Shown here one piece after another: positions 41,552 to 61,807 of a stretch of DNA of 64,000 bases. Source of the stretch: Phaeobacter gallaeciensis (lineage in GTDB: Bacteria; Pseudomonadota; Alphaproteobacteria; Rhodobacterales; Rhodobacteraceae); contig NZ_CP015124.1 in assembly GCF_001678945.1 (NCBI RefSeq), positions 2,642,001 to 2,706,000 on the forward strand, read 5' to 3'. The notes beneath the pieces were generated by a model that was not told the origin of the DNA, searched no databases, and worked only from the letters and a program-made list of their open reading frames with translations. Positions within the stretch are counted from its first letter, which is position 1; each line of letters opens with the position of its first letter. The position numbers and the translations under genes are program-made.

Positions 41552-42322
41552 ATGTCTTTGGTGCTCATCGAACGCCCCGGTGACCGGGTTGGTGTGATCC
41601 GGCTCAACCGCCCCGAACGGCGCAACGCGCTGTCGACCGAATTTCGGGCGGAAATCGCCAAGGCGGTGACTGAACTGGACGCCGACCCCGGGATCCGGTG
41701 CATCGTGATGACGGGCGATGAAAAGGCCTTTGCCGCCGGGGCGGATCTGGCCGAGCTGGCCGAGGTCCGGCCGATGCAGGAGGTCTTCGACCGTCTGGGT
41801 GCTGTCAAACGCGCGCTTGAAGCGTCGAATACCCCCGTCATCGCAGCGGTGCGTGGCATGGCGCTGGGCGGCGGCTGTGAGATGGCGATGATGTGCGACA
41901 TCATCATTGCAGGCGACACCGCCAAATTCGGCCAGCCGGAAATCAAGGTGGGCATCATGCCCGGCGCCGGAGGCACCCAGAAGATCCTGCGCACGGCAGG
42001 CAAGGCCAAGGCGCTGCGTTACATTCTGACAGGCGATCTGTTCCCGGCGGATGTGGCGTTGGACCTGGGCATCGTCTCAGAAGTGGTGCCGGATGCCGAG
42101 GTGATGGACACGTCGCTTGCCATGGCCAAGAGGATCGCCGCCCAGCCTGCCAAGGCGGTGCAGGCGATCCGTGACGCGGTGCGCGAGGGGGCGAATACGC
42201 CGCTGGATACCGCGCTCATGCTGGAGAACCGCCTGTTCCAGATGCTGTTTTCCACTGACGATCAAAAAGAGGGAATGCGCGCCTTTCTTGAAAAACGCGC
42301 CCCTGAGTTCAAAGGACAATAA
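41552..42322 (+). CDS. Enoyl-CoA hydratase
   Basis: 256 residues of the crotonase family. The two catalytic glutamates are Glu110 (GGGCEMAMMCD) and Glu130 (GQPEIKVGIMPGAGG). It hydrates trans-2-enoyl-CoA to the 3-hydroxyacyl-CoA. The start has GACGGGAG. The dehydrogenase for the next step starts three bases after the stop, so the two act in sequence. The pair resembles the PaaF/PaaH-type couples of aromatic and short-chain acyl-CoA breakdown, but no other paa gene is in the window. Confidence 0.92.
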   Translation: MSLVLIERPGDRVGVIRLNRPERRNALSTEFRAEIAKAVTELDADPGIRCIVMTGDEKAFAAGADLAELAEVRPMQEVFDRLGAVKRALEASNTPVIAAVRGMALGGGCEMAMMCDIIIAGDTAKFGQPEIKVGIMPGAGGTQKILRTAGKAKALRYILTGDLFPADVALDLGIVSEVVPDAEVMDTSLAMAKRIAAQPAKAVQAIRDAVREGANTPLDTALMLENRLFQMLFSTDDQKEGMRAFLEKRAPEFKGQ

Positions 42323-42325
42323 GTG

Positions 42326-43842: not shown

Positions 43843-43866
43843 GGGCGCGCTGGATCAGGCGCGCCC
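43843..43866. terminator. Hairpin between convergent operons
   Basis: GGGCGCGC (43843-43850) pairs with GCGCGCCC (43859-43866) around TGGATCAG. The stem lies between the dehydrogenase and the convergent flavoprotein gene, but neither side has a good T-run, so termination is uncertain. Confidence 0.4.
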
Positions 43867-45228
43867 GGCAAGATACCCCAAAGTCACCGCCGCCAGCAGC
43901 CCGTTGCCCGATAGATAACCGCTGTCGCCGGTGCCCGAAACGCCGCAGGCCGCGCCGCCCACGGCATGAAGGTTGTCAAAACTTCCACCCGCCGCGCGGC
44001 GCACCCGGGTCGTTGCGGGATCGACCTCTAGCCCGCCTTGGGTATGGAACAGCGCGCCGGTGACCTTCACCGCGTGATAGGTTGGGCGCAGTGGCGGGGT
44101 CTGCCCGCTCCAGAGTCTGCCAAAGGCGTCCGTGCCCTCGTTGGGTATATCGCCAATGGTATTGGCCAGCGCATCTGCGGGCAGGCCAGCCGCCTTGGCA
44201 AGCTCTGCAATGCTTTCACCGGCTAGCACCGCGCCTTGCTTTTCTGCGTTCTTGAAATCCTCGAACTGCCGCGCCACGGCGGCGATGCGACTGTCGAACA
44301 CCACCCAGGCGGTGCCGCCCGGCTGCGCCAGTACGGCGCGGGCTGCCTCGGAATAGCCCTGCGCCTCGTTCCAGAACCGTTTGCCCTGGCAATTCACCTG
44401 CATGCCGCCTTCGGTGATGGTGGCCCAGGTAATCAGGATGCCATGCGGATGCGCGACATTACCGTGCCCCTGATAGGCGCCCAGATGGGCGGTCGCTGCG
44501 CCCAGAGCCTGCCCCCAGGCCACGGCCTCGCCGCGGTTGCCGTCATGGCCGAACCAGACCGCATTGTCGATCTCTGCCATATGGGTGGAGACCATGGTGC
44601 GATTGCCACCAAAGCCGTTGCAGGCGAGGATCAGCCGCGCGCAGCCGATGGTTTCTGTACTGTCATCGGGCAGCTGCAACTGGGCGCCAAAGATGCGGTT
44701 TTCCTTCGAATAGAGTCTGATTGCGCGGCGATTGCAGATCAGCGGCACATCCAGCGTTTCGATCCGGGCGCGCAGGGCGTCGATCAGTTCCTGCCCGGAA
44801 CGGGTCGGCAGCCCGTGCATGCGGCGGCGGCTGTGGCCGGGGTAGTCAAAGTCGGTGACCAGTGAAAACGGCAACCCGTGATCGCGGGCCAGCCATTCGA
44901 TCACCGGCGCCGCCGTGCTGGCCATGCTGGCGACCAGATCCGGATCGTTTTCATCATGGGCCTTGGCCTGAATGTCCTGCGCAAACCGCTCTGCGTTGTC
45001 CTGGATGCCTGCCTCGGTCTGAAACTGCGTGCCCGCAGCGGGGATCAGACCGGCGCTGAGCGCGGTGGAACCCGATGGTACGGCGTCGGCCTCGACCAGC
45101 AGAACTTCCTGTCCTGCCTCATGGGCGGCCAGGGCGGCCACCATCCCCGCAGCGCCCGCCCCGATGATCAGGGTTTCGACCGTCAGGTCAAAGGATGCGG
45201 GTGGTTCAGCGACATCAGGACTTGCCAT
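43855..45228 (-). CDS. FAD-binding fumarate-reductase/ketosteroid-dehydrogenase-type oxidoreductase
   Basis: 457 residues from MASPDVAEPP, overlapping the upstream lyase gene by 14 bases, with GGAAAG as ribosome site. The FAD Rossmann motif LIIGAGAAGMVAALAAHEAG (residues about 21-40) and the C-terminal GGLEVDPATTRV...GVSGTGDSGYLSGNGLL place it in the FAD_binding_2 family. Such enzymes reduce or introduce C=C bonds next to a carbonyl or carboxylate. It is the last gene of the leftward operon. It could reduce an unsaturated dicarboxylate made in the pathway; this is inference. Confidence 0.8.
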   Translation of the reverse strand: MASPDVAEPPASFDLTVETLIIGAGAAGMVAALAAHEAGQEVLLVEADAVPSGSTALSAGLIPAAGTQFQTEAGIQDNAERFAQDIQAKAHDENDPDLVASMASTAAPVIEWLARDHGLPFSLVTDFDYPGHSRRRMHGLPTRSGQELIDALRARIETLDVPLICNRRAIRLYSKENRIFGAQLQLPDDSTETIGCARLILACNGFGGNRTMVSTHMAEIDNAVWFGHDGNRGEAVAWGQALGAATAHLGAYQGHGNVAHPHGILITWATITEGGMQVNCQGKRFWNEAQGYSEAARAVLAQPGGTAWVVFDSRIAAVARQFEDFKNAEKQGAVLAGESIAELAKAAGLPADALANTIGDIPNEGTDAFGRLWSGQTPPLRPTYHAVKVTGALFHTQGGLEVDPATTRVRRAAGGSFDNLHAVGGAACGVSGTGDSGYLSGNGLLAAVTLGYLAGRA

Positions 45229-46075
45229 CGAACCGCTTTCCAAGGGCCAGCATTCCAGGTGTTCCAATGGCCGCGTTCAGCCCGTCGAAATCGTGCATCC
45301 GGTCGGAAAATGGCTTGTTAGAGCCTGATTCTTTCAGGCTGGCATAGTAATTCTGCGCGGTCATCGCCAAGGCGCGAACGATGCCACCGGGGAAGATCAC
45401 GATGTCGAAGCCCATGTCCTGAAGGGTCGTGGCCGAGGAAATCGGCGTGGCTCCGCCTTCGACCATATTCGCCAGCAGCGGCACCTTGCCTTTGAAGGTC
45501 GCCGCGATCTTTGCCAGCTCGTCACTGTCGCGCGGGGCCTCGATGAACAGCACGTCGGCGCCTGCCTCGATGTAGCTACCGGCCCGGTCGATGGCGGCAT
45601 CAAATCCTTCGACGGCGATGGCATCGGTGCGGGCAATGATCAGCGTGTCCTGACGGCGGGCATCGGCCATGGCGGCGATCTTGCCCGACATCTCGGTCTT
45701 GGAGATCAGCGATTTGTCGGACAGGTGGCCGCATCTTTTGGGATAGCTCTGGTCTTCGACCTGAAGGGCGGCAGCACCTGCACGTTCATAGCTTTGCATG
45801 GTGCGCCGTGCATTGAGCGCGTTGCCAAAGCCGGTGTCGGCATCCATGATCACCGGCAGGTCGGTGCGATCCGCGATCAACGCCATGGTATCTGCCATCT
45901 CCGAGGCGGTGGTGAGACCGATATCGGGGCGGCCAAGGCGGGTGTAGGCCACCGCGGCCCCCGACAGGTATAGGGCCTCGAACCCGGCATCGGTGGCCAG
46001 CGCGGCCGTCAGGCCATCGTAGACACCGGGGGCCAGCAGGATCTCGGGCGAGGTCAGGCGCTTGCGCAGGCTCAT
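45215..46075 (-). CDS. Isocitrate lyase/PEP mutase family lyase, methylisocitrate- or dimethylmalate-lyase-like
   Basis: 286 residues. The catalytic loop KRCGH (Lys113 to His117 with Cys115) and the metal aspartates DAD (78-80) are those of carbon-carbon lyases (methylisocitrate, 2,3-dimethylmalate and oxaloacetate lyases), not of phosphonomutases. The expected reaction is retro-aldol cleavage of a 2-substituted malate into pyruvate or glyoxylate plus a second acid. It overlaps its upstream neighbour by four bases. In this operon, with a LeuC/LeuD-like hydratase opposite, a dimethylmalate-lyase-like role is attractive but not shown. Confidence 0.85.
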   Translation of the reverse strand: MSLRKRLTSPEILLAPGVYDGLTAALATDAGFEALYLSGAAVAYTRLGRPDIGLTTASEMADTMALIADRTDLPVIMDADTGFGNALNARRTMQSYERAGAAALQVEDQSYPKRCGHLSDKSLISKTEMSGKIAAMADARRQDTLIIARTDAIAVEGFDAAIDRAGSYIEAGADVLFIEAPRDSDELAKIAATFKGKVPLLANMVEGGATPISSATTLQDMGFDIVIFPGGIVRALAMTAQNYYASLKESGSNKPFSDRMHDFDGLNAAIGTPGMLALGKRFDGKS

Positions 46076-46674
46076 GACGTGCCTCCCAGCAGTGTCACTG
46101 CCTCGGCGCAGGTCATGATCTCCGTCACCGAGCCGAGAGATTTCAGAGTGGCCTCGTGCACGTCGTCCTTGAAGGCCGCGCAGCCATCCGACAGCAGGAT
46201 AGTGTGGATATCGCGCAGGTGGGCATCGCGGACGGTGCTGGCAACGCCGCCATTGGTGACGATACCGCCGATGATCAGCGAGTCGATCTTCATCGCCCGC
46301 AGGATATATTCAAGACGGGTCTGATATAGTGCCGAATAGGCCACCTTTTCCACCGTGAAATCGGCCGGAGCCAGAGTATCGACAAGGCTGTGCCCAAAGC
46401 TGCCCGGTTCAAAATCGCCCTTGGTCAGAAAGGGGCGCAGCTTTTTCAGGTGTGGCGAGATCAGCGGCTCCCGACCACGACCCGGCACCAGCGTGAACTG
46501 GGCCGAGATATAACTCCCCCCGGCCTTGGTCAGTGCGGTTTTCACCGGCGCGATCCGGTTCGGAAGGGCCTTGATGCTGTCGGCGCCCTGACCCGCACGG
46601 CCATAGGCACCCTCGGGGTGCAAAAAGTCGTTTTGCAGGTCAATTGTCAGCAGGGCAGTGGAGGAGGGGGTCAT
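46072..46674 (-). CDS. Isochorismatase-fold protein lacking the catalytic cysteine
   Basis: 200 residues of the isochorismatase superfamily. Asp12 (TIDLQNDF) and Lys110 (FTVEKVAYSALY) are in place, but the position that carries the nucleophilic Cys in amidases (TNxCV) reads TNGGV, so Gly143 replaces Cys. The DNA is unambiguous here (GTCACCAATGGCGGCGTT). Cys-less members include true isochorismatases (vinyl-ether hydrolysis), so it may cleave an enol ether or act non-catalytically; an amidase role would be unexpected. It overlaps both neighbours by four bases. Confidence 0.8.
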   Translation of the reverse strand: MTPSSTALLTIDLQNDFLHPEGAYGRAGQGADSIKALPNRIAPVKTALTKAGGSYISAQFTLVPGRGREPLISPHLKKLRPFLTKGDFEPGSFGHSLVDTLAPADFTVEKVAYSALYQTRLEYILRAMKIDSLIIGGIVTNGGVASTVRDAHLRDIHTILLSDGCAAFKDDVHEATLKSLGSVTEIMTCAEAVTLLGGTS

Positions 46675-48737
46675 GCGCTGGCCCTTTCGATCAGTGTATT
46701 GCCGTAGGCGTCGACTTTGCCGACGAGCCCGGGTTCGATCAAGACGGTGGTGTCGGGCTGCTCCAGAATGGCCGGACCCGCGATTTCGGCGCCGACGGGC
46801 AGGGCCAGCCGGTCATAGAGGCTGGTTTCGTGCCAGATGCCGTCGAAATGCACCTGCCGGGTGCCCCGGAAGGCCTGCTCGGTACTGCCGCCCTTGGGTG
46901 CTAGCGTTGCCAGATCGAACCGCGGACGGCGGCCTGTGATGGCCGAGCGCAGGTTGATCACCCGCCGGGTGCCGTTTTCCAGAAGTCGACCGTAGGTGGC
47001 GCGATAGGCCGCATCAAAGGCATCGGCGATCTGCGCCTCGGTCGGCGGTGTCACGACGCCGTTTTCAACGGTGACCGGCAGGGTGACGGGCACCGTGTGG
47101 GTCTGCCCGAGATAGGCCATATCAAGGGTGAATTCGGTGTCGCGCCGCTCGAAATGGGTGCGCGCTGCGTCCAGTGTGGCCAGCCCGCTGTCGACGTGGC
47201 TTTGCATGAACCCGGTCAGGCTTTGCAGGTCGATACCGGCCAGGACCGAATTGATAGTCTGCACGAAATCTTGCCGCATATCGGCGATCACGCAGCCCAT
47301 CGCCGAGGTCACGCCGGGATAGCGCGGTACGATGGCGCGGGCGAGACCGACCTCGGCCAGCATGGCGCCCGAATGCAGCGCGCCGCCACCGCCAAAAGGC
47401 ATGAAGGCAAAACGTTCGGGATCAAAGCCGCGCTCGATAGAGACCAGTCTGAGCGCTCCGGCCATACGGCTATTGGCAACGCGCAGGATCGCCTCGGCGG
47501 CTTGCAGTGCATCCATGCCCAGCGGACGCCCGACGTGTTCCAGGATCGCAGCCTTGGCGGCCTCGACATCCAGCCGGTCCAGCTTACCGCCGATGGGATT
47601 GTCGGGATCGATGCGGCCCAGAACGACATTGGCATCGGTCACGGTGGGGCGGGTGTTGCCCTGACCATAGGCCACTGGGCCGGGAGTGGAGCCGGCGCTT
47701 TCCGGTCCGATGTTCAGCAGGCCACCCTTGTCGACCCAGGCAATCGAGCCGCCGCCCGCGCCGATAGTGGTGATTTCGATCATCGGGGAGCGGACCACCA
47801 TGCCGAAATCGATCGAGGTTTGCGGCGACAGCATGGATGTGCCCTTGGCGATCAGGCTGACATCAAAGGAGGTGCCGCCCATGTCGCCGGTGATGACATC
47901 TGGAAATCCGGCCGCTTCGGCAATGTATCCGGCTGCGATGACACCGGCCGCCGGGCCGGACAGAGCAGTGCGGACCGGCAGTTTTGCCGCCGTGTCCACA
48001 TCCATCACGCCGCCATTGGACTGGACGATCATGAATTCCCCGGCGAACCCGCCTTCCTTCAGCGCGGTTTCGAGCCGCGCCAGATAACCCGAGACTTCGG
48101 GTTGCAGATAGGCATTGAGCGCGGTCGTGGAAAAACGTTCGAATTCCCGGATTTCTGGCAGGATCTCCGAAGATGCCGAAACATGCGCATTGGGCCACAT
48201 CTCGCGCACGGCAGAAACGGCGGCGCGTTCGTTTTCGCCATTGGCATAGCTGTTGGCAAAGAGGATCGCGCAGGCAAGGCAGCCTTCGTCGATCAGTTGC
48301 TGAGCTGCGGTGCGCACCGCGTCCAGATCGACCGGCGTGCGCACGGTGCCATCGGCCAGTGTGCGCTCCGGCACCTCCAGCCGCAGGGCGCGGTCCACCA
48401 CCGGAGTGAAGTTCCCCCGCAGACCCCAGGTGCGCGGGCGATCGCGGCGGCGCATCTCCAGAACGTCACGTAGGCCCATTGTGGTTATCACCCCGATCCG
48501 GGCGCCCTTACGCTCGAGCAGCGCATTGGTGCCTGCGGTGGTTCCGTGCACCACCACCGAGACGGTCGAAAGATCATCGACGCGGGAATTGATCCCGGAG
48601 AGGAAGCCGCCGGATTGGTCCGGGCGCGTGGTGGGTACCTTGGCGACTTCGGCGGTGCCGGTGGCTTCGTCCAGAACGAAGATATCGGTGAAGGTGCCGC
48701 CGACATCGACGCCGATCATGCGGTTGCTGCTGGTCAT
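46671..48737 (-). CDS. hyuA: Hydantoinase/5-oxoprolinase family, A subunit
   Basis: 688 residues. The N-terminal ATPase-like phosphate loop IGVDVGGTFTDIFVLDE, GAGGGSIAWVDKGG and FGGGGALHSG are typical of HyuA. With HyuB it forms ATP-dependent hydrolases that open cyclic amides (N-methylhydantoin, 5-oxoproline, caprolactam) or, in the related acetone carboxylases, activate a ketone. It overlaps hyuB and the next gene by four bases each. The substrate here is unknown. Confidence 0.9.
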   Translation of the reverse strand: MTSSNRMIGVDVGGTFTDIFVLDEATGTAEVAKVPTTRPDQSGGFLSGINSRVDDLSTVSVVVHGTTAGTNALLERKGARIGVITTMGLRDVLEMRRRDRPRTWGLRGNFTPVVDRALRLEVPERTLADGTVRTPVDLDAVRTAAQQLIDEGCLACAILFANSYANGENERAAVSAVREMWPNAHVSASSEILPEIREFERFSTTALNAYLQPEVSGYLARLETALKEGGFAGEFMIVQSNGGVMDVDTAAKLPVRTALSGPAAGVIAAGYIAEAAGFPDVITGDMGGTSFDVSLIAKGTSMLSPQTSIDFGMVVRSPMIEITTIGAGGGSIAWVDKGGLLNIGPESAGSTPGPVAYGQGNTRPTVTDANVVLGRIDPDNPIGGKLDRLDVEAAKAAILEHVGRPLGMDALQAAEAILRVANSRMAGALRLVSIERGFDPERFAFMPFGGGGALHSGAMLAEVGLARAIVPRYPGVTSAMGCVIADMRQDFVQTINSVLAGIDLQSLTGFMQSHVDSGLATLDAARTHFERRDTEFTLDMAYLGQTHTVPVTLPVTVENGVVTPPTEAQIADAFDAAYRATYGRLLENGTRRVINLRSAITGRRPRFDLATLAPKGGSTEQAFRGTRQVHFDGIWHETSLYDRLALPVGAEIAGPAILEQPDTTVLIEPGLVGKVDAYGNTLIERASA

Positions 48738-50428
48738 TGGGTCACCTCTTTCCAGGCCGGGCCATAGGTTTCGGTCGCTGCGTCAGGGCTCATCAACCCG
48801 CCTGCCACATCGCGGGCGACATCGGCTGCCGGGCGCTGTGACGCCGGGCCGTAGCCGCCGCCGCCTGGGGTATCGAGCCGCACTGACTGGCCGCGCTCCA
48901 GCTTGATTCCAACCATTTTCGAGGCCATCGGCGGGTGATGCCAGCCATCTGCCTGCTCGTAGGAAAAGACATTGAGCGCAGCATCGCCGCCGCCAGCCGC
49001 GCCCTTGGGCGCAAAGCGGCCACGTTCACCGAAGAGGAAGGCGGTGGCGCTTTCCTCCAGTACTTCAATTTCATAGGTCGCGCCCATGCCGCCCCGATGC
49101 ATGCCGGGGCCTGCGCTGTCTGGGCGCAGGGCCCATTGCTTGAACATCACCGGATAGGCTGCCTCAAGGATTTCCATCGGCGGGATTGTCGCGGTCGAAA
49201 TTGGCGCATTGCCGTGATTCAGCCCGTCGCCTTCGATGGAGCCGCCATGGCCGCCGCCGTAAAAGCTGAACATGACCCAGGGCTGACCATTGGCGCGTTT
49301 GCCGGAAATCGACAGGGCGTTGATGGTGCCATAGGCATTGGCGACGACGCGATCCGGCGCCGCCTGTGAGGCCGCGGCAAAGATCACGTCAACCATGCGC
49401 AGGATCGTTTCGGTGTAGCCGCCGACCGGCGCCGGGAAGGGCGCAGACAGCAGCGATCCATCGGGGATCTTCACCTCGATCGGGCGCATTACGCCAGAGT
49501 TCGCAGGCAGGGACGGGAAGATATGCTTGATCGCCACATAGGCGGTTGCGACCGCCGTCGGCAGTGCAATGTTCACCGGGCCTGCGCAGCGGTCTGCCGT
49601 TCCTGTGAAATCCAGCGTCATCCGGTCATCATTGATCTCCAGCGCGACTTTGATTGCCAGCGGCGTATCGGTGATGCCATCATTGTCGAGGAAATCCTCG
49701 GCCTCCCAGCGACCGTCGGGCAGTTCACTCAGCTCCGAACGCATCAGCGCTTCGGCACGGTCCTGCAAGGCATCAAGGGCCGCGCGCACGGTTTCGGCGC
49801 CATATTCGGCCAGCAATTCATCAAGACGTTTCACGCCCAGATCCAGCGCTCCCAGCTGACCGTTCAGATCGCCCTGCGCCGATTGCGGCAGACGGGTGTT
49901 GCGCATCAGAATGTCGGTGATGTCGGTTTGGATCTTGCCTGCCTTGGCCAGCCGGACCGGCGGCAGGACAAAGGCCTCCTGAAAGGCATCGGTGGCAGCG
50001 GGGTTGTAGTTGCCCGGCACCGCGCCGCCCACATCGTGCCAATGTCCGACCGAGGCGAGATAGCAGAACAGTTTGCCATCGTGGAAATAGGGCCGCACTA
50101 GCCGCATGTCGCTGAGGTGGGTGCCGCCCAGATGCGCATCGTTGAAAATATAGATGTCGCCGTCTTCCAGGTCGCCGTTTTCGGCGGCCTTTTCGATGAC
50201 GGCCTTCACCGCAAAGGACATCACCCCGACAAAGATTGGCAGGCCGGATTTGCCCTGTACCAGAGTGTCGCCCGACACCGCGTGATAGAGGCCGTGCGAT
50301 GCGTCATGGGCCTCGGCGATGATTGGGTTGAAGGCGGCGCGAAACAGAGTGGCATCCATTTCATCCGCGATTTGCTCCATCCGTCCGGCCAGCACGGCCA
50401 GCGTGATCGGGTCTATCTCTTTGGTCAT
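48734..50428 (-). CDS. hyuB: Hydantoinase/5-oxoprolinase family, B subunit
   Basis: 564 residues. N-terminal ITLAVLAGRMEQIADEMDATLFRAAFNPIIAEAHDASHGLY, then YIFNDAHLGGTHLSDMRLVRP and the central FYGGGHGGSIEGDGLNHGNA are hallmarks of HyuB. C-terminal LDTPGGGGYGPASQRP is also typical. It is the partner of HyuA; their stop and start codons overlap (ATGA), as do those of the fused tautomerase gene before it. Confidence 0.9.
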   Translation of the reverse strand: MTKEIDPITLAVLAGRMEQIADEMDATLFRAAFNPIIAEAHDASHGLYHAVSGDTLVQGKSGLPIFVGVMSFAVKAVIEKAAENGDLEDGDIYIFNDAHLGGTHLSDMRLVRPYFHDGKLFCYLASVGHWHDVGGAVPGNYNPAATDAFQEAFVLPPVRLAKAGKIQTDITDILMRNTRLPQSAQGDLNGQLGALDLGVKRLDELLAEYGAETVRAALDALQDRAEALMRSELSELPDGRWEAEDFLDNDGITDTPLAIKVALEINDDRMTLDFTGTADRCAGPVNIALPTAVATAYVAIKHIFPSLPANSGVMRPIEVKIPDGSLLSAPFPAPVGGYTETILRMVDVIFAAASQAAPDRVVANAYGTINALSISGKRANGQPWVMFSFYGGGHGGSIEGDGLNHGNAPISTATIPPMEILEAAYPVMFKQWALRPDSAGPGMHRGGMGATYEIEVLEESATAFLFGERGRFAPKGAAGGGDAALNVFSYEQADGWHHPPMASKMVGIKLERGQSVRLDTPGGGGYGPASQRPAADVARDVAGGLMSPDAATETYGPAWKEVTQ

Positions 50429-50991
50429 GGGTTTGCCTTTGTTTCAGCGATATCGTTCCAGACGTCCTGCCGGGTGAGACGCCCGTCCACCACTTCGAAG
50501 CGGTCGATGAACCGGATGCCGCTGAAGGGGGTGCCATCCGGCCATTCGCCCGACAGGGTGCCGCGGCAATAGACAACGGCGGCGTCCTGCGGCGATTGCA
50601 GCGCTTCGAAGCCCTCGTATGTCTTGGTGACGAAATTGTATCGGGGCTTTGCCCATTCGATCAGCTCTTCCAGCGTCGTCATCGGGGCGGTGCCGGGGAA
50701 CGTCATGGAGAAGCCGGGAGCCAGCAGCGCCCGGGCCGTGTCTATCTCTCGCGCTTCCATCGCGGTCAGGTAGTTGCGCACCAGAGATACCGGATCGGGC
50801 AGGGCGGGGGCGGGGCTGCGATGCGCGCCACCGCGCATGTAGCCCGCAGGATCCAGCTCATGAATCATAACGGTGACGGCCTCGGGCGGGGCGGGCACGA
50901 CGATTCGCACCGCGTTGGTCAGCGCCGCGCACAGCCGCGTTTTCTCGTCTGCGCTATATCCCTGCATCACGTGGAGTTCGATGACGGGCAT
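50425..50991 (-). CDS. 4-oxalocrotonate-tautomerase and SnoaL-like domain fusion
   Basis: 188 residues from MPVIELHVMQGYSADEKTRL, whose Pro2 becomes the N-terminal catalytic proline of 4-OT tautomerases after Met removal. An AAAAGGAG lies upstream; a longer reading adds AT-rich, unrelated sequence. Residues about 1-62 are the tautomerase domain, 75-185 a SnoaL/NTF2-like domain (LVRNYLTAMEAREIDTARALLAPGF to FIDRFEVVDGRLTRQDVWNDI). The pair could shift a double bond and shape a substrate pocket in one chain. It is the first gene of the leftward operon, facing the GntR regulator. Confidence 0.75.
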   Translation of the reverse strand: MPVIELHVMQGYSADEKTRLCAALTNAVRIVVPAPPEAVTVMIHELDPAGYMRGGAHRSPAPALPDPVSLVRNYLTAMEAREIDTARALLAPGFSMTFPGTAPMTTLEELIEWAKPRYNFVTKTYEGFEALQSPQDAAVVYCRGTLSGEWPDGTPFSGIRFIDRFEVVDGRLTRQDVWNDIAETKANP

Positions 50992-51020
50992 GAAGTCTCC
51001 TTTTCTAAATTGGTATCTTT

Positions 51021-51062
51021 TGTAATACAGATTAATTGCTGCGCATAGGTCAAATATTTTGA
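51021..51062. promoter_or_regulatory. Candidate GntR operators in the divergent promoter
   Basis: TGTAATACA (51021-51029) is a perfect nine-base palindrome and TCAAA-TAT-TTTGA (51050-51062) an inverted repeat. Both lie in the AT-rich gap between the tautomerase-fusion gene and the GntR gene, where a HutC-type regulator would control both operons. Confidence 0.5.
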
Positions 51063-51132
51063 ACATCTGTGAATAGATTTGTTGCTTTTGAAAAAACCAT
51101 TGCTAGGCTTGAGAGGCAGTGAAAGGAGAAAT

Positions 51133-51948
51133 ATGGGACAGAATCTGGCATCTTCCGCAAGCAAAGGTCTGCCTGAAGGGGGCAAGGCGCAGCGTGTCTT
51201 TTTGCATCTGCATCAAGAGATTACCCGTGGTGTCTACGCGCCGGGGAGCGTGCTGCCGGGTGAGCAGAAGCTGGCCGCGACTCTGGGCGTGTCCCGTGTC
51301 ACTGTGCGTCGGGCGCTAGATGTGCTGGAGAAGGACGGGCTGGTTGAGCGCCGTGTCGGATCCGGCACAACGGTCTGCGCGCAGAAGTCCAGTCCTTCGA
51401 TGGCGGCGGACTTCAGTACCCTGATGCCGCAGTTGGTTGAAATGGGGCAGAACACCACTGCACGGCTGCTCTCCTTCAGCTATGGCGCTGCGCCCGGCGG
51501 CGTTGCCGAGGCGCTGGGCCTTGGGGCTCAGGTACGGGTTCAAACAGCGGTACGCCTGCGTCTGGTTGAAAATGAACCTTTCTCCCATCTGACCACATGG
51601 GTGCCGGAAGAAATCGCGCAGAATTACACAGAGGCTGAACTGGCCACGACGCCACTGTTCCGCCTTCTGGAGCGCTCGGGCGTCAAAGTCGATTCCGCCC
51701 ATCAGACGGTCAGCGCGACGCTGGCCTCTCCGGAAGTTGCCGAAACGCTGGGTGTTCGGATCGGCGCGCCGCTCTTGTCCCTCGACCGGGTTGTGCGCGA
51801 CGAGGAAGGCCGCGGGGTCGAATACCTTGCCGCGCTCTACCGGCCTGACATGTTCCGGCTTGAGATGTCGCTGAACCACGTCGGCGTGGGCGAAACCCGC
51901 CATTGGGAGCCGGTGATCAATCCGGCCCGCAAAGAGGCAGCCGAATGA
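51133..51948 (+). CDS. GntR-family regulator, HutC/UTRA type
   Basis: 271 residues from the ATG with GAAAGGAG. The winged HTH (VFLHLHQEITRGVYAPGSVLPGE, then LGVSRVTVRRALDVLEKDG) is followed from about 100 by a UTRA ligand-binding domain (RLLSFSYGA to YLAALYRPDMFRLEM). HutC-type proteins sense pathway substrates or intermediates, such as urocanate in HutC. It is the first gene of the rightward operon, its stop overlapping the LeuC-like start as ATGA, and is divergent from the catabolic genes, so it probably controls both. Confidence 0.9.
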   Translation: MGQNLASSASKGLPEGGKAQRVFLHLHQEITRGVYAPGSVLPGEQKLAATLGVSRVTVRRALDVLEKDGLVERRVGSGTTVCAQKSSPSMAADFSTLMPQLVEMGQNTTARLLSFSYGAAPGGVAEALGLGAQVRVQTAVRLRLVENEPFSHLTTWVPEEIAQNYTEAELATTPLFRLLERSGVKVDSAHQTVSATLASPEVAETLGVRIGAPLLSLDRVVRDEEGRGVEYLAALYRPDMFRLEMSLNHVGVGETRHWEPVINPARKEAAE

Positions 51949-53342
51949 CTGCCCCGCAGACCCTGTTCGACAAGCTCTGGGCTGCGCATGAGATCATGCG
52001 ACGCGACGATGGCATGTCCCTCCTGTGGGTGGACCGGCATCTGGTGCACGAAGGCTCGCACCACGCCTTTGCCAAGCTGGCGCAGCGGGGCCTGAAAGTG
52101 GCCGAACCTGATCTGACCTTTGCGGTGGTCGATCACTATGCGCCAACACGACCGGGCGCTGTCGCGCCCGATATCCGCCGGATGATCGACACTCTGGGCC
52201 AGAATGCACGGGCACAGGGCCTCCGGCTGTTCGATCTGCACGATCCGGGGCAGGGCATTGTGCATGTGCTTGGTCCCGAGCAGGGGCTGACGCTGCCTGG
52301 ACTACTGATCAACTGCGGGGATAGCCATACCTCCACTCACGGGGCGCTTGGGGCTTTGGCCTTTGGCGTCGGGGCGACCGAAGTCGCCCATATTCTGGCA
52401 ACCCAAACGATCTGGCAGCGTCGGCCCAAGACCATGCGGATTTCGGTCAATGGCGCCCTTGGCGCTGGTGTCACGGCCAAGGATCTTGCACTGCACTGGA
52501 TCGCCGAACTGGGCGCGGATGGCGCCAGGGGTCACGCAATCGAATACGCGGGCAGCGCGGTTGAGGCGTTGAGCATCGAAGGTCGCCTGACCCTGTGCAA
52601 TCTCAGCATCGAGGGTGGTGCCCGGCTGGGTCTGATCGCGCCGGATCAGATCACTTTCGACTATCTGAAAGGGCGCAATTTCGCCCCGAAGGGTGCCGCC
52701 TGGGAGGCTGCTCTGGCGGATTGGCAGAAGCTCTACAGCGATGCGGAGGCCATCTTCGATCAGGAGGTTGCAATCGAAGCCGCAGAGATCGCCCCGACGG
52801 TGACCTGGGGTACTTCTCCGGAAGAGGCGCTGCCGATCACTGGCCGTGTACCGCGCCCGGCAGACCTGCCCGGAGGAAAGCAGGGTCAGGCGCGTGCGAC
52901 GCTCGATTACATGGGCCTTGAAGCAGGGATGCCGCTTGAGGACATCGCGGTTGATCAGGTGTTCATCGGCTCCTGCACCAATGGCCGGATCGAGGATCTG
53001 CGCCTCGCGGCCAAGGTTCTGGCGGGACGCCAGGCCAAGGTGCCCGGTCTGGTGTCGCCGGGGTCCGCCGTTGTCAAGAAACAGGCCGAGGCTGAAGGGC
53101 TGGCGCAGATCTTTACCGATGCGGGCCTGGAATGGGCCGATGCCGGCTGTTCCATGTGTGTGGGCATGAATGGTGATCTGGTCGAGGCAGGCAAACGCTG
53201 CGCCTCCTCCACCAACCGGAATTTCCGCGGGCGGCAAGGACGCGGCGCGCGGACCCATCTGATGAGTCCCGCCATGGTCGCCGCCGCCGCCGTTACCGGA
53301 CATCTTGCCGATGTGCGCCCGCTGCTGGAGGGCCGGTCATGA
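51945..53342 (+). CDS. Aconitase-fold hydratase large subunit, LeuC-like
   Basis: 465 residues from MTAPQTLFDKLW. The 4Fe-4S ligands are Cys344 (IGSCTNGRIEDL) and Cys402/Cys405 (AGCSMCVGM); NCGDSHTSTHGALGALAFGVGATEV and NRNFRGRQGRG are further family motifs. LeuC/dimethylmaleate-hydratase-type enzymes add water to an unsaturated dicarboxylate. The neighbours (lyase, hydantoinase, TRAP) argue against leucine synthesis, as no leuA or leuB is nearby. Its small subunit gene overlaps it by four bases. It is an alternative aconitase-fold hydratase, not proven for any substrate. Confidence 0.85.
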   Translation: MTAPQTLFDKLWAAHEIMRRDDGMSLLWVDRHLVHEGSHHAFAKLAQRGLKVAEPDLTFAVVDHYAPTRPGAVAPDIRRMIDTLGQNARAQGLRLFDLHDPGQGIVHVLGPEQGLTLPGLLINCGDSHTSTHGALGALAFGVGATEVAHILATQTIWQRRPKTMRISVNGALGAGVTAKDLALHWIAELGADGARGHAIEYAGSAVEALSIEGRLTLCNLSIEGGARLGLIAPDQITFDYLKGRNFAPKGAAWEAALADWQKLYSDAEAIFDQEVAIEAAEIAPTVTWGTSPEEALPITGRVPRPADLPGGKQGQARATLDYMGLEAGMPLEDIAVDQVFIGSCTNGRIEDLRLAAKVLAGRQAKVPGLVSPGSAVVKKQAEAEGLAQIFTDAGLEWADAGCSMCVGMNGDLVEAGKRCASSTNRNFRGRQGRGARTHLMSPAMVAAAAVTGHLADVRPLLEGRS

Positions 53343-53929
53343 GCGGGTGGAGCAAGATCGAAGGCCGGGCGGTGGCGCTGGCGCAGGAGAATGTGGACAC
53401 GGACCAGCTGATCCCGGCGCGGTTCATGTCGGCGCCGCGCAGCGAGGGGTATGGCCAATTTCTGCTGCACGATGCGCGTCAGGATGACGACGTGCATGTG
53501 CTGAACCTGCATCCCGGCGCCTCGGTGCTCGTGACGCGGCGCAATTTCGGCAGCGGTTCCAGCCGCGAGGCTGCCGTTTATGCGCTGGTGGATTTCGGGA
53601 TCAAGGCAGTCTTCGCCCCCAGTTTTGGCGACATCTTTTCTGGCAACGCCGTCAACAACGGCCTGCTGCCCGCACGCCTGCCAGAAGAACAGATCGAGGC
53701 GCTGATCAGCGCTATCGGCAGCAATGATGTGGCGGCCACCGTCGATCTGGCTGCTGGCCGTGCCAGCATCGCCGGGCAGGAGGTCTCTTTCGAGATTGAC
53801 CCCGTCTGGCAGCAAAAACTGGTCAACGGTTGGGACGACATCGACCTGACCGCTCAGCACCAAGAACGGATTTCAACGTTTCGGGCGGCCCGTGCTTCTC
53901 AGCACCCATGGGCTTGGCCCGCGACGTAA
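53339..53929 (+). CDS. Aconitase-fold hydratase small subunit, LeuD-like
   Basis: 196 residues. NVDTDQLIPARFM and FGSGSSREAAVYALVDFGIKAVFAPSFGDIF give the swivelling-domain family. It completes the active site of the large subunit with the substrate-binding Arg (SSRE). The start codon overlaps the large-subunit gene by four bases. The C-terminus, about 25 residues after QQKLVNGWDDIDLT, is somewhat longer than in LeuD. Confidence 0.85.
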   Translation: MSGWSKIEGRAVALAQENVDTDQLIPARFMSAPRSEGYGQFLLHDARQDDDVHVLNLHPGASVLVTRRNFGSGSSREAAVYALVDFGIKAVFAPSFGDIFSGNAVNNGLLPARLPEEQIEALISAIGSNDVAATVDLAAGRASIAGQEVSFEIDPVWQQKLVNGWDDIDLTAQHQERISTFRAARASQHPWAWPAT

Positions 53930-54011
53930 GACGGCAACGGGCCCCGCTGGGGGCCGGGGCCACAACCAAAGGGGCGTCACAAGGCACCCCATCACCAGGG
54001 AGAAAGACAAA

Positions 54012-55010
54012 ATGAAGCACAGTATGATTGGTGCAGTCCTTGTCACCACGGCGATGACCTCGGCTGCCTTTGCCGAAGACACGCTGACCGCCGTACACGC
54101 CTTTCCGGAATCGCTGATCTACACCAAATCCTTCCTTGAATTCGTCGACAAGGTGAACGCGGCGGGTGAAGGTGTCGTCAATATCGAGGTCCGTGGCGGC
54201 CCCGAGGCCATCGGCATGTTCCAGCAGCCGGACGCCGTGCGTTCGGGCGTTGTGGACATGGTCTACACACCGGGCAGCTTCTACGCCGGCGCCCTGCCGG
54301 AAAAAGACGCGCTTGTGACCTCAAACCTGACGGCGGTAGAAACCCGCGCCAATGGCGGTCTGGAACTGATTGACCAGATCCACCAGGAAAAGATGGGCGT
54401 CAAATACCTCGGCTGGTTCGACTCGGGAGTCTGCTACAACCTGTGGACCCGCAATGAGCCGAAGCTGGACGCCGACGGCAACCTTGATGTGTCCGGTCTG
54501 AAACTGCGCGGCAATGCGGTCTACAACGCATTCTTCACCGAATATCTGGGCGCGCAGGTGATCGACCTGCCTACCACCGAAGTCTATTCGGCGCTGGAGC
54601 GTGGCGTGGTGGATGCGACCGGTTGGACCCAGATCGGCCTGATCGATCTGAAGTGGAACGAATTCCTGAACTACCGGATCGAACCCTGCTTCTTCTCGAC
54701 CGACCTTGGCACCATCGTGAATCTCGACAAGTGGAACAGCCTGTCCGAGGAATCGCGCAAGATCCTGCAGGATGTCGCAATCGCCCACGAGGCGGAAAGC
54801 GCCGCCAAACTGGGTGCCCTGCGCGACGCGGATTTCGCGGCCCTTGAAGAGGCCGGCATGAAAGTCGTGACCTTGGAAGGTGACGCCGCCGACGCCTATC
54901 TGGCGGCCGCCACGCAGAAAACCTGGGACCGCATGAAGGGCCTGATGGCCGACAGCCCCCAGGGAGACGGCAACTACGACAAGCTGATCGAGCTGTTCTA
55001 CGACAAGTAA
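54012..55010 (+). CDS. dctP: TRAP transporter substrate-binding protein DctP
   Basis: 332 residues from the ATG with GGGAGAAAG. Signal peptide KHSMIGAVLVTTAMTSAAFA, then the DctP-type binding fold with GPEAIGMFQQPDAVRSGVVDM and YNAFFTEYLGAQVIDLPTTEVYSALERGVVDATGW, which holds the conserved Arg/ligand region. Such proteins bind organic acids with a carboxylate and hand them to DctQM in the inner membrane. It lies 82 bases past the LeuD-like gene; a small CCCC/GGGG hairpin at 53940-53955 may modulate expression. Confidence 0.9.
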   Translation: MKHSMIGAVLVTTAMTSAAFAEDTLTAVHAFPESLIYTKSFLEFVDKVNAAGEGVVNIEVRGGPEAIGMFQQPDAVRSGVVDMVYTPGSFYAGALPEKDALVTSNLTAVETRANGGLELIDQIHQEKMGVKYLGWFDSGVCYNLWTRNEPKLDADGNLDVSGLKLRGNAVYNAFFTEYLGAQVIDLPTTEVYSALERGVVDATGWTQIGLIDLKWNEFLNYRIEPCFFSTDLGTIVNLDKWNSLSEESRKILQDVAIAHEAESAAKLGALRDADFAALEEAGMKVVTLEGDAADAYLAAATQKTWDRMKGLMADSPQGDGNYDKLIELFYDK

Positions 55011-55076
55011 ACAGCCACGGGACGGCACGCCGGATCGCGGGTCCGGCGTGCCGTCTGCCTTTGGAAAGGATGAGAA

Positions 55077-55583
55077 ATGGCAATGGTCGGAAAGCTCTAT
55101 CAAGGCTTCCTATATGCGATGGCGGGCATCGCGGGGTTCATGCTGGTCTGGCTGATGATTTCGGTCACCCTGTCCGTGGTGATGCGCAATGCTGGGCTTC
55201 AGCCCTTTGCCTGGCTTTTCACCTCATCCGAATACGCCATTTTGTACATGACCATGATGGGCGCCCCCTGGTTGGTGCGGGAAAAGGGCCATGTGCATAT
55301 CGAACTGATCACCGCTGCATTGCCCGCAGAGGTGCGCCGGGTGGTCAGCCGTCTTGTGGCCGCGCTTTGTGTTCTGGTGTCGGTGATCCTGGCCTGGAAG
55401 GGCGCAGAGCTGTTTCTGGGCAATATCGCGCGCAACGATCTGGACGTGCGCGCCTACTACTTTCCGAAATGGATCCTGACGATCGCCTTTCCGGTCAGCT
55501 TTGGACTGATGGCGATTGAATTTTCCCGTTTCGTATTTGGCAGCGACCTGATGCATTCGGGCGAAGCGGGGATACACGAATAA
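55077..55583 (+). CDS. dctQ: TRAP transporter small permease DctQ
   Basis: 168 residues with four membrane helices (about 12-36, 45-65, 90-110, 133-153). It matches the small TRAP membrane subunit by size, by the helix pattern and by position between dctP and dctM. The start follows GGAAAGG. Its TAA overlaps the ATG of dctM by one base. Confidence 0.9.
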   Translation: MAMVGKLYQGFLYAMAGIAGFMLVWLMISVTLSVVMRNAGLQPFAWLFTSSEYAILYMTMMGAPWLVREKGHVHIELITAALPAEVRRVVSRLVAALCVLVSVILAWKGAELFLGNIARNDLDVRAYYFPKWILTIAFPVSFGLMAIEFSRFVFGSDLMHSGEAGIHE

Positions 55584-56890
55584 TGGAATGGTTTGAATCA
55601 CTGGCCCTGCTGCTGGGCTCGATCCTGGTTCTGATGGCCATCGGCATGCCGGTCGCTCTTGCCTTTCTGGCGGCCAATATCGTCGGGGCCTGGTTTTTCA
55701 TGGGCGGGGCCAAGGGGATCACGCTGCTGCTCAACAACGGGTTTGGCGGGCTGACGAACTATGCGCTGGTGCCGATCCCGCTGTTCCTGCTGATGGGAGA
55801 GGTCTTCTTTCACACTGGCCTTGGGGCACGGATGTTCAATGCCATCGACAGGCTTCTGGGTAAGCTGCCCGGGCGGTTGTCTTATGTGACTGTGCTGGGC
55901 GGGACAGCGTTTTCGACGCTGTCCGGCTCCTCCATGGGCTCGACCGCGCTGCTGGGCAGCCTAATGGTGCCCGAGATGACCAGCCGCGGATACAAGAAGC
56001 ACATGTCGATCGGGCCAATCCTGGGCACCGGTGGTCTGGCGATCATCATTCCGCCCTCTGCTTTGGCGGTGCTGCTGGCGACGCTCGCCCGCATCGACGT
56101 CGGCGCGCTGCTGATCGCGGGGATCCTGCCGGGGCTGGTGTTGGCCAGCTTTTATATCTGTGTCATCTATCTGCAGACCCGCATCGACCCGACCGCTGCC
56201 CCTGCCTATGAGGTTGAGACGCTCACCATCGGTGAAAAGGCGCGGCTGCTGTTCGGAGACGTCCTGCCCATGCTGTCGGTCATGGTTCTGATCGTCATCG
56301 GCATGGTTGGTGGGCTGATCACCCCGTCCGAGGCCGCCGCCTTTGGCGCGCTTGGGGTCCTGATCCTTGCCATTCTGTTTCGCTGTCTCAGCTGGGAGGC
56401 GATGAAGAAGTCCGTCGTCGGCGCGCTGCGAGTGACGCTGATGGCCTATCTGATCGTGTTCGGCTCAGCCACTTTCAGCCAGCTGCTGGCCTTTTCCGGT
56501 GCCTCCAGCGGGCTGATCCGCTGGGCGACTTCCTTTGATCTGGCGCCGGTTGCGATGCTGTTGGTGATGTTCTGTGTGCTGCTGCTGCTGGGCATGTTCA
56601 TGGAGCAGATCTCGATGATGCTGCTGACCGTGCCGATCTTCTTTCCGCTGGCGGCCTCGCTGGGGTTCGATCCGATATGGTTCGGTTTGATCATCCTGCT
56701 GGCGTTGGAGATCAGCTTCACCACGCCACCCTTCGGACTGTTGCTTTTCGTGATGAAAGGGGTGGCGCCCAAGGATACCACGATGCGCGACATCTACATG
56801 TCCGCCTTTCCCTATATGGCCTGCTCGATGCTGCTGGTCGCCTTGCTGATCCTGTTTCCTCAGCTGGCGCTGTGGCTGCCGGGGCTGTGA
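55583..56890 (+). CDS. dctM: TRAP transporter large permease DctM
   Basis: 435 residues with about 12 membrane helices. GGTAFSTLSGSSMGSTALLGSLMVPEM and ITPSEAAAFGALGVL are DctM signatures, and TPPFGLLLFVMKGVA near the C-terminus repeats the inverted topology. It forms the Na-driven translocation channel with DctQ. It closes the rightward operon; a strong terminator follows. Confidence 0.94.
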   Translation: MEWFESLALLLGSILVLMAIGMPVALAFLAANIVGAWFFMGGAKGITLLLNNGFGGLTNYALVPIPLFLLMGEVFFHTGLGARMFNAIDRLLGKLPGRLSYVTVLGGTAFSTLSGSSMGSTALLGSLMVPEMTSRGYKKHMSIGPILGTGGLAIIIPPSALAVLLATLARIDVGALLIAGILPGLVLASFYICVIYLQTRIDPTAAPAYEVETLTIGEKARLLFGDVLPMLSVMVLIVIGMVGGLITPSEAAAFGALGVLILAILFRCLSWEAMKKSVVGALRVTLMAYLIVFGSATFSQLLAFSGASSGLIRWATSFDLAPVAMLLVMFCVLLLLGMFMEQISMMLLTVPIFFPLAASLGFDPIWFGLIILLALEISFTTPPFGLLLFVMKGVAPKDTTMRDIYMSAFPYMACSMLLVALLILFPQLALWLPGL

Positions 56891-58703: not shown

Positions 58704-58927
58704 AACCGTCTCCATCGTTAAGCACGCCCTGGTGCTGTCGCATTTAACGTTGGCCAGTGTATGCAAGCGCAGTCGCTACACTTTGATCGATATCATCTTT
58801 GAGTGGAAATTCTGTCGGCACAGTCCATAGCCTGATTCGCTGACGGCATTTGCACCAGCTTTTCTTACCAGCGCTGCGCCGATGGCAGCGGCTGGCAATT
58901 GCTGGGCTGGTGCGATTGGGCTGGGGG

Positions 58928-61729: not shown

Positions 61730-61807
61730 GCGCTGTCCTTTGACTACAGGAGAAGGACGGGCGCCCCGCAAAAAGCAAGGCGCCCGGAAGAACGTACAAG
61801 GCGTGGC

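What the first reader, a model, noticed from the sequence alone, without database searches (positions are those of the whole stretch)
43855..56890. Divergent catabolic island combining hydantoinase, tautomerase fusion, aconitase-fold hydratase, KRCGH lyase and a TRAP importer
Six leftward genes overlap by 4-14 bases each (tautomerase-SnoaL, hyuB, hyuA, isochorismatase-fold, ICL/PEPM lyase, FAD oxidoreductase); rightward a HutC-type regulator, LeuC/LeuD-like pair and DctPQM follow. Opening of a cyclic amide or imide, double-bond shift, hydration and retro-aldol cleavage to pyruvate plus a short acid would make a complete pathway. The last two steps have the same enzyme types as dimethylmaleate hydratase and dimethylmalate lyase of nicotinate fermentation, but a hydantoinase/tautomerase entry with TRAP uptake is, to my knowledge, not a described set. 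The substrate is open.
Basis: partly seen in the sequence, partly recalled or inferred. Interest (0 to 1): 0.78.

Follow-up and report, generated by a model that had tools for sequence, protein, structure and literature searches.

The report
Probable cyclic-imide breakdown gene cluster
A block of twelve genes that recurs in many marine and soil bacteria looks like a complete, so far undescribed route for taking up a small nitrogen-ring acid and cutting it into a keto acid plus glutarate; break-down products of chlorophyll and heme are the best guess for the food.

Summary
The island is real. Six leftward genes overlap by 4-14 bases; rightward, regulator, LeuC and LeuD overlap by 4, then DctPQM. 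It is conserved: all 12 genes stand together in 51 of 80 named loci, while flanks vary. LeuCD is a second copy.

Relatives reduce it to a core: HyuB-HyuA-isochorismatase-fold protein, PrpB-like lyase, and a LeuCD- or HacAB/DmdAB-type hydratase, with interchangeable importers. The tautomerase domain is optional. The isochorismatase-fold protein has lost the cysteine nucleophile (invariant glycine), so it is not an ordinary amidase.

New clue: in 11 of 67 loci with room, the operon continues with a glutaryl-CoA dehydrogenase, in 9 of them followed by a CaiB CoA-transferase; ten of 13 in-cluster dehydrogenases form one clade apart from housekeeping copies. The lyase's acid product is therefore probably glutarate, not a short acid. 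Working back gives a (2-carboxyethyl)-substituted maleate, naturally reached from a maleimide or succinimide. Hematinic acid (chlorophyll/heme product) fits best, yielding pyruvate plus glutarate. Families, conservation and the glutarate link are shown; ring opening, order and substrate are inferred. The paper searches made found no such pathway.

The parts
43855..45228 (-). FAD_binding_2 oxidoreductase, flavocytochrome c / urocanate-reductase-like; proposed C=C forming dehydrogenase of the saturated (succinimide/succinate) form
   Evidence: Pfam/NCBIfam/PDB; present in 71 of 80 named loci; start ATG 45228
45215..46075 (-). ICL/PEPM-superfamily lyase, PrpB-like, KRCGH loop (113-117), Arg234 at the place of PrpB Arg241
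   Evidence: present in 79 of 80 named loci
46072..46674 (-). isochorismatase-fold protein without the catalytic cysteine (TNGGV), Asp and Lys kept
   Evidence: predicted fold (mean pLDDT 83, some blocks 59-68) matches biuret/triuret hydrolase, RutB and maleamate amidase
46671..48737 (-). HyuA, hydantoinase/oxoprolinase ATP-dependent subunit
   Evidence: Pfam; best solved relative N-methylhydantoinase 448 bits
48734..50428 (-). HyuB, hydantoinase B/oxoprolinase
   Evidence: Pfam (559 bits); NCBIfam caprolactamase beta below cut-off
50425..50991 (-). 4-oxalocrotonate-tautomerase domain fused to a SnoaL-like domain; the tautomerase part is optional in relatives
51011..51030 (-). probable GntR operator CTGTATTACAAAAGATACCA ahead of the leftward operon
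   Evidence: palindrome TGTATTA..ATACA in 27 of 61 relatives' intergenic regions (first seen); window match with 3 mismatches, 0.18 expected per window, 14 of 100 shuffles had one
51133..51948 (+). GntR/HutC-type regulator with UTRA domain
51945..53342 (+). LeuC-like hydratase large subunit (paralogue of the higher-scoring LeuC elsewhere in the genome)
53339..53929 (+). LeuD-like hydratase small subunit, substrate loop PARFMSAPR
54012..55010 (+). DctP solute-binding protein of a TRAP importer
55077..55583 (+). DctQ small permease
   Evidence: position and synteny; no NCBIfam hit
55583..56890 (+). DctM large permease
   Evidence: TIGR00786 above cut-off
41552..43819 (+). neighbouring enoyl-CoA hydratase and PaaH-like 3-hydroxyacyl-CoA dehydrogenase that could take crotonyl-CoA onward; not part of the conserved island
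   Evidence: of the fetched loci only L158 has a full-length comparable dehydrogenase (44%) beside its cluster

Best explanation
A GntR-controlled catabolic island for a five-membered cyclic imide or lactam that carries a 2-carboxyethyl side chain. TRAP imports the acid (inferred). HyuAB opens the ring with ATP (inferred from family). The cysteine-less isochorismatase-fold protein removes the amide nitrogen, perhaps because a substituted maleamate supplies its own neighbouring carboxylate as nucleophile (inferred). The FAD enzyme makes the C=C when the saturated form is the starting point, and SnoaL/tautomerase places the double bond (inferred). LeuCD hydrates the resulting cis-maleate; the PrpB-like lyase splits the hydroxy acid into a 2-oxo acid (pyruvate if the substituent is methyl) and glutarate (glutarate supported by operon evidence in relatives). 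Glutarate goes through CoA-transferase and glutaryl-CoA dehydrogenase to crotonyl-CoA, by in-cluster copies in some lineages and by genes elsewhere in this genome. Hematinic acid, and its dihydro form, is the best substrate guess.
For: HYB-HYA-ISO together in 27 of 30, lyase in 24 of 30 and a LeuC-type hydratase in 20 of 30 regions from class- and phylum-level samples. A GCDH starts 74-119 bases behind FAD or lyase in 11 of 67 named loci with room, 9 of them followed by CaiB; also in the Tistrella operon HYB-HYA-ISO-GCDH-CaiB-LeuC-LeuD. The Tistrella GCDH scores 620 bits to solved GCDH 1sir, and the roseobacter-type copies are 66-71% identical to it; 14 of 15 in-cluster copies show SGYR and 15 of 15 YEGTHD. 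The Tistrella CaiB's best NCBIfam family is succinate-glutarate CoA-transferase, 533 bits, below the 750 cut-off. In-cluster GCDHs: 10 of 13 form one clade (99/92), apart from the other copies of G116 and G371. The lyase keeps the Arg that PrpB has and petal death protein lacks, as expected for a third carboxylate; PrpB's Leu-Ser near it is Gly-Gly. Own genome has GCDH (81%) and a CaiB (68%) elsewhere. HyuA's closest solved relative is N-methylhydantoinase. Hematinic acid is a known chlorophyll product (PMC12860425, passages) and ChuS heme product (PMC11442138, passages).
Against: GCDH was not found in the other 56 of the 67 loci with room, and GCDH is near-universal in the family (373 of 394), so its presence in a genome tests nothing. 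Three of 13 in-cluster GCDHs (L172, L137, L195) fall outside the clade. The CaiB score is below its family's cut-off, and L213 has CaiB without GCDH. Tistrella-type loci L195, L214 and L215 lack the lyase in the fetched stretch. No tetrapyrrole gene was seen in the six annotated regions. The heme-uptake locus beside this genome's CaiB is a genus trait only: 4 of 4 genus members, 0 of 10 others. A cysteine-less amidase step is unprecedented to my knowledge. Nothing was assayed.
Confidence: 0.5

Rival explanations
1. Homoaconitate version: the side chain is carboxyethyl but there is no methyl, so the hydratase makes homoisocitrate and the lyase gives glyoxylate plus glutarate.
For: Second cluster type uses a HacA-family hydratase with YMK or YMR in the small-subunit loop in 5 of 5 rows, where homoaconitase has YLRT (recalled). 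The glutarate evidence fits equally.
Against: No glyoxylate-using gene among the 12 genes or the neighbours annotated; no common natural imide of homoaconitate known to me; the loop KRCGH is the PrpB form rather than the ICL form KKCGH (PMC11982470 passages), though that paper also says the motif alone does not decide the substrate, and one row (L046) has KKCGH.
Confidence: 0.15
2. One reading: a dimethylmaleate-like acid, hydrated to dimethylmalate and split to pyruvate plus propionate or another short acid.
For: Same two enzyme types as in nicotinate fermentation (recalled); the lyase shares NMxEGG and EAP with petal death protein; some variants add MmgE/PrpD-family proteins, a family that serves propionate use.
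Against: Glutaryl-CoA dehydrogenase and CaiB in the operon of several relatives; the lyase keeps the PrpB Arg that petal death protein lacks.
Confidence: 0.15
3. Hydantoin route: HyuAB opens a 5-substituted hydantoin, the isochorismatase-fold protein acts as carbamoylase, and the racemases of some variants racemise the hydantoin.
For: Asp/Glu/hydantoin racemase-family genes in variants; nearest isochorismatase-fold relatives hydrolyse biuret, triuret or ureidoacrylate.
Against: The cysteine those enzymes use is an invariant glycine here; no aminotransferase or ammonia-lyase among the 12 genes or in the annotated neighbours links an amino acid to the hydratase-lyase pair; racemase genes were matched in few loci.
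Confidence: 0.12
4. Ordinary: a redundant leucine or citramalate isomerase that lies beside unrelated catabolic genes by chance.
For: LeuC and LeuD pass the NCBIfam leuC/leuD cut-offs.
Against: Separate, higher-scoring LeuC; linkage with HyuAB, lyase and ISO over many genera and two hydratase types; overlapping reading frames.
Confidence: 0.03

Closest known systems
Nicotinate fermentation end module (dimethylmaleate hydratase DmdAB + 2,3-dimethylmalate lyase), Eubacterium barkeri (recalled)
   Same: aconitase-fold hydratase acting on a disubstituted maleate followed by an ICL/PEPM lyase giving a 2-oxo acid plus an acid
   Different: no B12 mutase, enamidase or molybdenum hydroxylase among the 12 genes; HyuAB entry; TRAP import; product probably glutarate instead of propionate
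2-methylcitrate cycle (PrpD/AcnD + PrpB)
   Same: hydratase plus KRCGH lyase; PrpB Arg retained
   Different: no citrate synthase among the 12 genes; LeuCD replaces the aconitase-type hydratase; lyase scores 297 bits, below the prpB equivalog cut-off 354
Cyclic imide degradation by imidase and half-amidase (Blastobacter; recalled; only listed papers holding such words)
   Same: ring opening, then loss of the amide, then dicarboxylate use
   Different: uses HyuAB (ATP type) and a cysteine-less isochorismatase-fold protein; adds hydratase, lyase, FAD enzyme
N-methylhydantoinase / 5-oxoprolinase / caprolactamase HyuAB family
   Same: both subunits full length and best matched to these
   Different: below the caprolactamase cut-offs (502 of 1000 and 311 of 1000 bits); substrate unknown
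Maleamate amidase NicF/Ami and RutB/biuret hydrolases
   Same: fold; the Asp and Lys of that family are kept (their role recalled)
   Different: catalytic Cys replaced by invariant Gly

Membership tests
Isochorismatase-fold cysteine amidohydrolases (RutB, BiuH, TrtA, NicF) | same fold | tested here: met
   predicted model: Z 19.3, rmsd 3.5, 188 aligned to 6azn; NicF 3ot4 Z 17.9, rmsd 3.8, 180 aligned
Isochorismatase-fold cysteine amidohydrolases (RutB, BiuH, TrtA, NicF) | catalytic cysteine nucleophile | tested here: not met
   TrtA Cys (Ser in the C162S entry 6xj4) aligns with Gly in TNGGV; Gly invariant in 13 of 13 and at least 95% of 50
PrpB 2-methylisocitrate lyase | KRCGH loop | tested here: met
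   KRCGH at 113-117 in the window and in 10 of 11 rows; L046 has KKCGH
PrpB 2-methylisocitrate lyase | NCBIfam equivalog cut-off | tested here: not met
   TIGR02317 296.7 bits, cut-off 354.4
Leucine-pathway LeuCD | sequence family | tested here: met
   TIGR00170 616.2 over 560.25; TIGR00171 157.6 over 116.25
Leucine-pathway LeuCD | the genome's isomerase for leucine | tested here: inconclusive
   a better-scoring second LeuC exists; function not assayed
Nicotinate-fermentation dimethylmaleate module | DmdAB-type hydratase | tested here: inconclusive
   window pair is of the bacterial LeuCD type; second cluster type is HacA / LeuD-DmdB family
Nicotinate-fermentation dimethylmaleate module | 2-methyleneglutarate mutase and enamidase present in the set | tested here: not met
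   none of the 12 genes belongs to these families; the rest of the genome was not searched for them
HyuAB hydantoinase/oxoprolinase | Hydantoinase_A N, A, C and Hydantoinase_B domains | tested here: met
HyuAB hydantoinase/oxoprolinase | ATP-dependent cleavage of a cyclic amide or imide | not testable with these tools
   needs enzyme assay
4-oxalocrotonate tautomerase | amino-terminal Pro after Met | tested here: met
   window; 47 of 54 rows of at least 175 aa begin Met-Pro, starts chosen by script; the domain is absent or decayed in several clusters
4-oxalocrotonate tautomerase | other catalytic residues (Arg11, Arg39; recalled) | not tested
   not examined beyond reading the alignment
Glutaryl-CoA dehydrogenase (in-cluster copies of relatives) | whole-protein similarity and conserved motifs | tested here: met
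   Tistrella copy 620 bits to 1sir; YEGTHD in 15 of 15, SGYR in 14 of 15 in-cluster copies
Succinate-glutarate CoA-transferase (in-cluster CaiB of relatives) | NCBIfam NF052585 cut-off | tested here: not met
   Tistrella copy: best family, but 533 bits against a cut-off of 750

The most novel reading that the evidence does not exclude
The island is the first gene set for growth on tetrapyrrole-derived imides: hematinic acid and dihydrohematinic acid, stable end products of chlorophyll, heme and bilin breakdown, are imported, opened by HyuAB, de-amidated by a cysteine-less isochorismatase-fold enzyme that lets the substrate's own carboxylate do the attack, hydrated as a homologue of methylaconitate and cleaved to pyruvate plus glutarate.
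Probability: 0.28. Interest if true: 0.85.

Novelty: new variant of a known kind. Interest (0 to 1): 0.62.

Why it matters
If right, it supplies a missing catabolic route that is common in roseobacters and reaches rhizobia, azospirilla and paraburkholderias, ends in a defined product that can be assayed, and would give a biological sink for maleimides that geochemists use as chlorophyll markers. The cysteine-less isochorismatase-fold protein would be a case of substrate-assisted amide hydrolysis. Even if the substrate guess is wrong, the glutarate end point narrows the search sharply.

Tried and rejected
Presence or absence of GCDH over 394 genomes as a test: useless, 373 have it. Heme locus beside the own genome's CaiB as support: set aside as a genus trait. 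Searching the own genome for more operator copies: none at 2 mismatches, but the window's own site has 3, so the test is blind. Conserved flanking genes by all-against-all comparison of 61 loci: none in more than 8; my simple ORF caller often picks antisense frames in this GC-rich DNA, so tblastn was used instead. The first GCDH tree held three bad rows (two wrong frames, one wrong gene) and was replaced; that tree uses 13 of the 15 in-cluster copies (L149 and L160, near-copies of Marivita rows, left out) and 21 other copies picked by me. Papers: nothing held the gene combination (0 papers); two searches listed hematinic acid papers (titles, starts of abstracts), of which I read passages of two and saw no catabolic pathway there; one search listed 8 papers on dimethylmaleate hydratase or lyase that I did not open; one search found nothing on the PDB relative of DctP. 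Recalled, from no call: the role of PrpB Arg241, the ligand of 4mni, the species of 1sir, homoaconitase YLRT, the Gly of true isochorismatases, the Eubacterium pathway. Fast hydrolysis of substituted maleamic acids is from a reference title and two passages of a review plus recall.
Full report
What is there. Searches give the reading frames; their families. Leftward from 50991: tautomerase-SnoaL fusion, HyuB, HyuA, isochorismatase-fold protein (ISO), PrpB-like lyase, FAD oxidoreductase, overlapping by 4, 4, 4, 4 and 14 bases once starts are set. Rightward from 51133: GntR/UTRA regulator, LeuC, LeuD (overlaps of 4), DctP, DctQ, DctM. Another LeuC of the genome lies elsewhere and scores higher (797 against 616 bits).

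Conservation. The fusion protein was found in 75 of 394 sampled genomes of the family at E 1e-15; 50 rows run from residue 1 or 2 to at least 182, most others match only the SnoaL part. Of 60 regions fetched around these hits, 45 hold at least 8 of the 12 genes at 50% identity and 33 hold all 12. Twenty more regions from weaker hits were not counted; about half hold only a SnoaL paralogue, while L094, L096, L097, L098, L101 and L104 hold clusters. Flanks differ from genome to genome. Sulfitobacter pontiacus carries the set on plasmids.

What varies and what does not. Class- and phylum-level samples gave 26 of 385 and 8 of 398 genomes with ISO at E 1e-45, the window's genome counted in both; 30 further regions were fetched. 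HyuB-HyuA-ISO stand together in 27 of 30, the lyase is in 24, a LeuC-type hydratase in 20; L228 and L234 have ISO without HyuAB. Outside the roseobacter type the hydratase is mostly of the HacA / LeuD-DmdB kind (16 of those 20), and importers seen are branched-chain-type ABC, oligopeptide-type ABC and TAXI-TRAP. The tautomerase domain is missing or decayed in several clusters and a separate frame in L042; the FAD enzyme was not found in L094, L101, L158 and L197. Some variants add MmgE/PrpD proteins, Asp/Glu racemase-family or arylmalonate-decarboxylase-like proteins.

The isochorismatase-fold protein. Its nearest solved relatives include cysteine amidases. The TrtA nucleophile, Cys162, aligns with a glycine in TNGGV; that glycine (142), Asp11 and Lys109 (numbering, one less than in the full protein) are invariant in 13 of 13 rows, the distant cluster type included. 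It therefore cannot use the usual thioester mechanism. True isochorismatases also have Gly there (recalled). A substituted maleamate needs less help, since its neighbouring carboxyl group attacks the amide (Kirby's work, seen as a reference title in PMC6384577, and as passages in PMC8198240). This is an inference.

The glutarate clue. In 11 of 67 named loci with at least 1.3 kb behind the last cluster gene (16%), a glutaryl-CoA dehydrogenase starts 74-119 bases downstream on the same strand: Marivita, Dinoroseobacter, Boseongicola, a Cohaesibacteraceae and other Paracoccaceae or unplaced alphaproteobacterial genomes, six of the eleven being Marivita or near-copies. A CaiB CoA-transferase follows in 9 of the 11; none was found in L172, and L176 ends about 430 bases on. 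The order HyuB-HyuA-ISO-GCDH-CaiB-LeuC-LeuD is one run in Tistrella, and L213 has CaiB, without GCDH, in the same place. The Tistrella dehydrogenase matches solved GCDHs at about 600-620 bits; the Tistrella transferase's top NCBIfam model is succinate-glutarate CoA-transferase, though below its cut-off, and its PDB relatives include succinate-hydroxymethylglutarate CoA-transferase. The other in-cluster copies are 66-71% (GCDH) and 50-54% (CaiB) identical to these. Genomes G116, G312 and G371 hold two GCDHs. In the tree (34 rows, chosen by me: 13 in-cluster, 21 others), 10 of 13 in-cluster copies form one clade with support 99/92; the other copies of G116 and G371 lie outside. L172, L137 and L195 do not join the clade. 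Against over-reading: 56 of 67 loci lack it, and GCDH is present in 373 of 394 family genomes anyway. The window's genome has both functions elsewhere.

Reading backwards. A lyase of this superfamily turns HOOC-C(OH)(R1)-CH(R2)-COOH into R1-CO-COOH and R2-CH2-COOH (established chemistry). If the acid is glutarate, R2 is CH2CH2COOH. The lyase keeps at position 234 the Arg that PrpB has and that petal death protein replaces by Tyr, while PrpB's Leu-Ser nearby is Gly-Gly (alignments; role of the Arg recalled): consistent with a third carboxylate on a longer arm. The pyruvate-binding Tyr, Ser and Arg named for PrpB in PMC11982470 (passages) are at Tyr36, Ser38 and Arg149 by my alignment. LeuCD-type enzymes act on cis acids, and opening a maleimide gives the cis form. 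With R1 methyl, the ring compound is hematinic acid; a saturated ring would need the FAD enzyme. PMC12860425 (passages) describes hematinic acid as a chlorophyll breakdown product of senescent leaves and related maleimides in sediments; PMC11442138 (passages) states that ChuS cleaves heme to a tripyrrole and hematinic acid. The window's genome has a HemS-family gene (ChuS belongs to that family by recall). With R1 hydrogen, the compound would be homoaconitate and the keto acid glyoxylate; this is not excluded.

Regulation. A palindrome TGTATTA-N-ATACA lies just ahead of the leftward operon in 27 of 61 relatives; the window has CTGTATTACAAAAGATACCA, with an imperfect second half, at 51011-51030. 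It is a probable GntR operator.

Shown: gene content, starts, conservation, core and variants, loss of the cysteine, GCDH/CaiB extension in relatives and its clade. Inferred: every enzymatic step, the order of steps, nitrogen release, glutarate as product in this strain, hematinic acid as substrate. Print search: in the held PMC library showed no such pathway in what they listed; most subscription journals and all preprints are outside that library.

Noticed in passing
window 36567-37778 and 41552-43819 (+): Thiolase, enoyl-CoA hydratase and PaaH-like 3-hydroxyacyl-CoA dehydrogenase stand beside the island and could carry crotonyl-CoA on; linkage not conserved in the fetched relatives.
   Followed up: partly
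L263 (own genome C1:2568000-2587900): The genome's best CaiB match to the in-cluster glutarate-type CoA-transferase sits right behind an exbD-tonB pair of a heme-uptake locus (HemS by Pfam, the other labels by eye); same in 4 of 4 genus members, in 0 of 10 other genomes.
   Followed up: yes
L053: Two MmgE/PrpD proteins, a second FAD enzyme and a second lyase stand beside the island.
   Followed up: no
L235:2600-17568: HyuB-HyuA-ISO with two distant CaiB matches, a distant PrpD match, a second isochorismatase-like protein and a protein that looks like a maleate isomerase: perhaps a related pathway (last two labels by eye).
   Followed up: no
L216:6066-10365, L228, L234: HyuB-HyuA-ISO alone (L216) and ISO without HyuAB (L228, L234) exist.
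   Followed up: no
L042, L087: Tautomerase and SnoaL as two overlapping matches in different frames (L042) and the tautomerase as a short remnant (L087): fusion and loss seen in one family.
   Followed up: partly
window 57021-58766 (-): Protein with RTX-type calcium-binding repeats next to the island.
   Followed up: no
window 58928-62821 (-): FAD_oxidored protein with a TauC/SsuC-like permease and an NMT1-like binding protein: another importer operon.
   Followed up: no
small hydratase subunits of L044, L046, L094, L097, L197 versus window LeuD: The substrate loop carries Met (FM or YM) in both hydratase types of this cluster, 10 of 11 rows, but Leu in the housekeeping LeuD and in the Azospirillum copy L196; possible convergence.
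   Followed up: no
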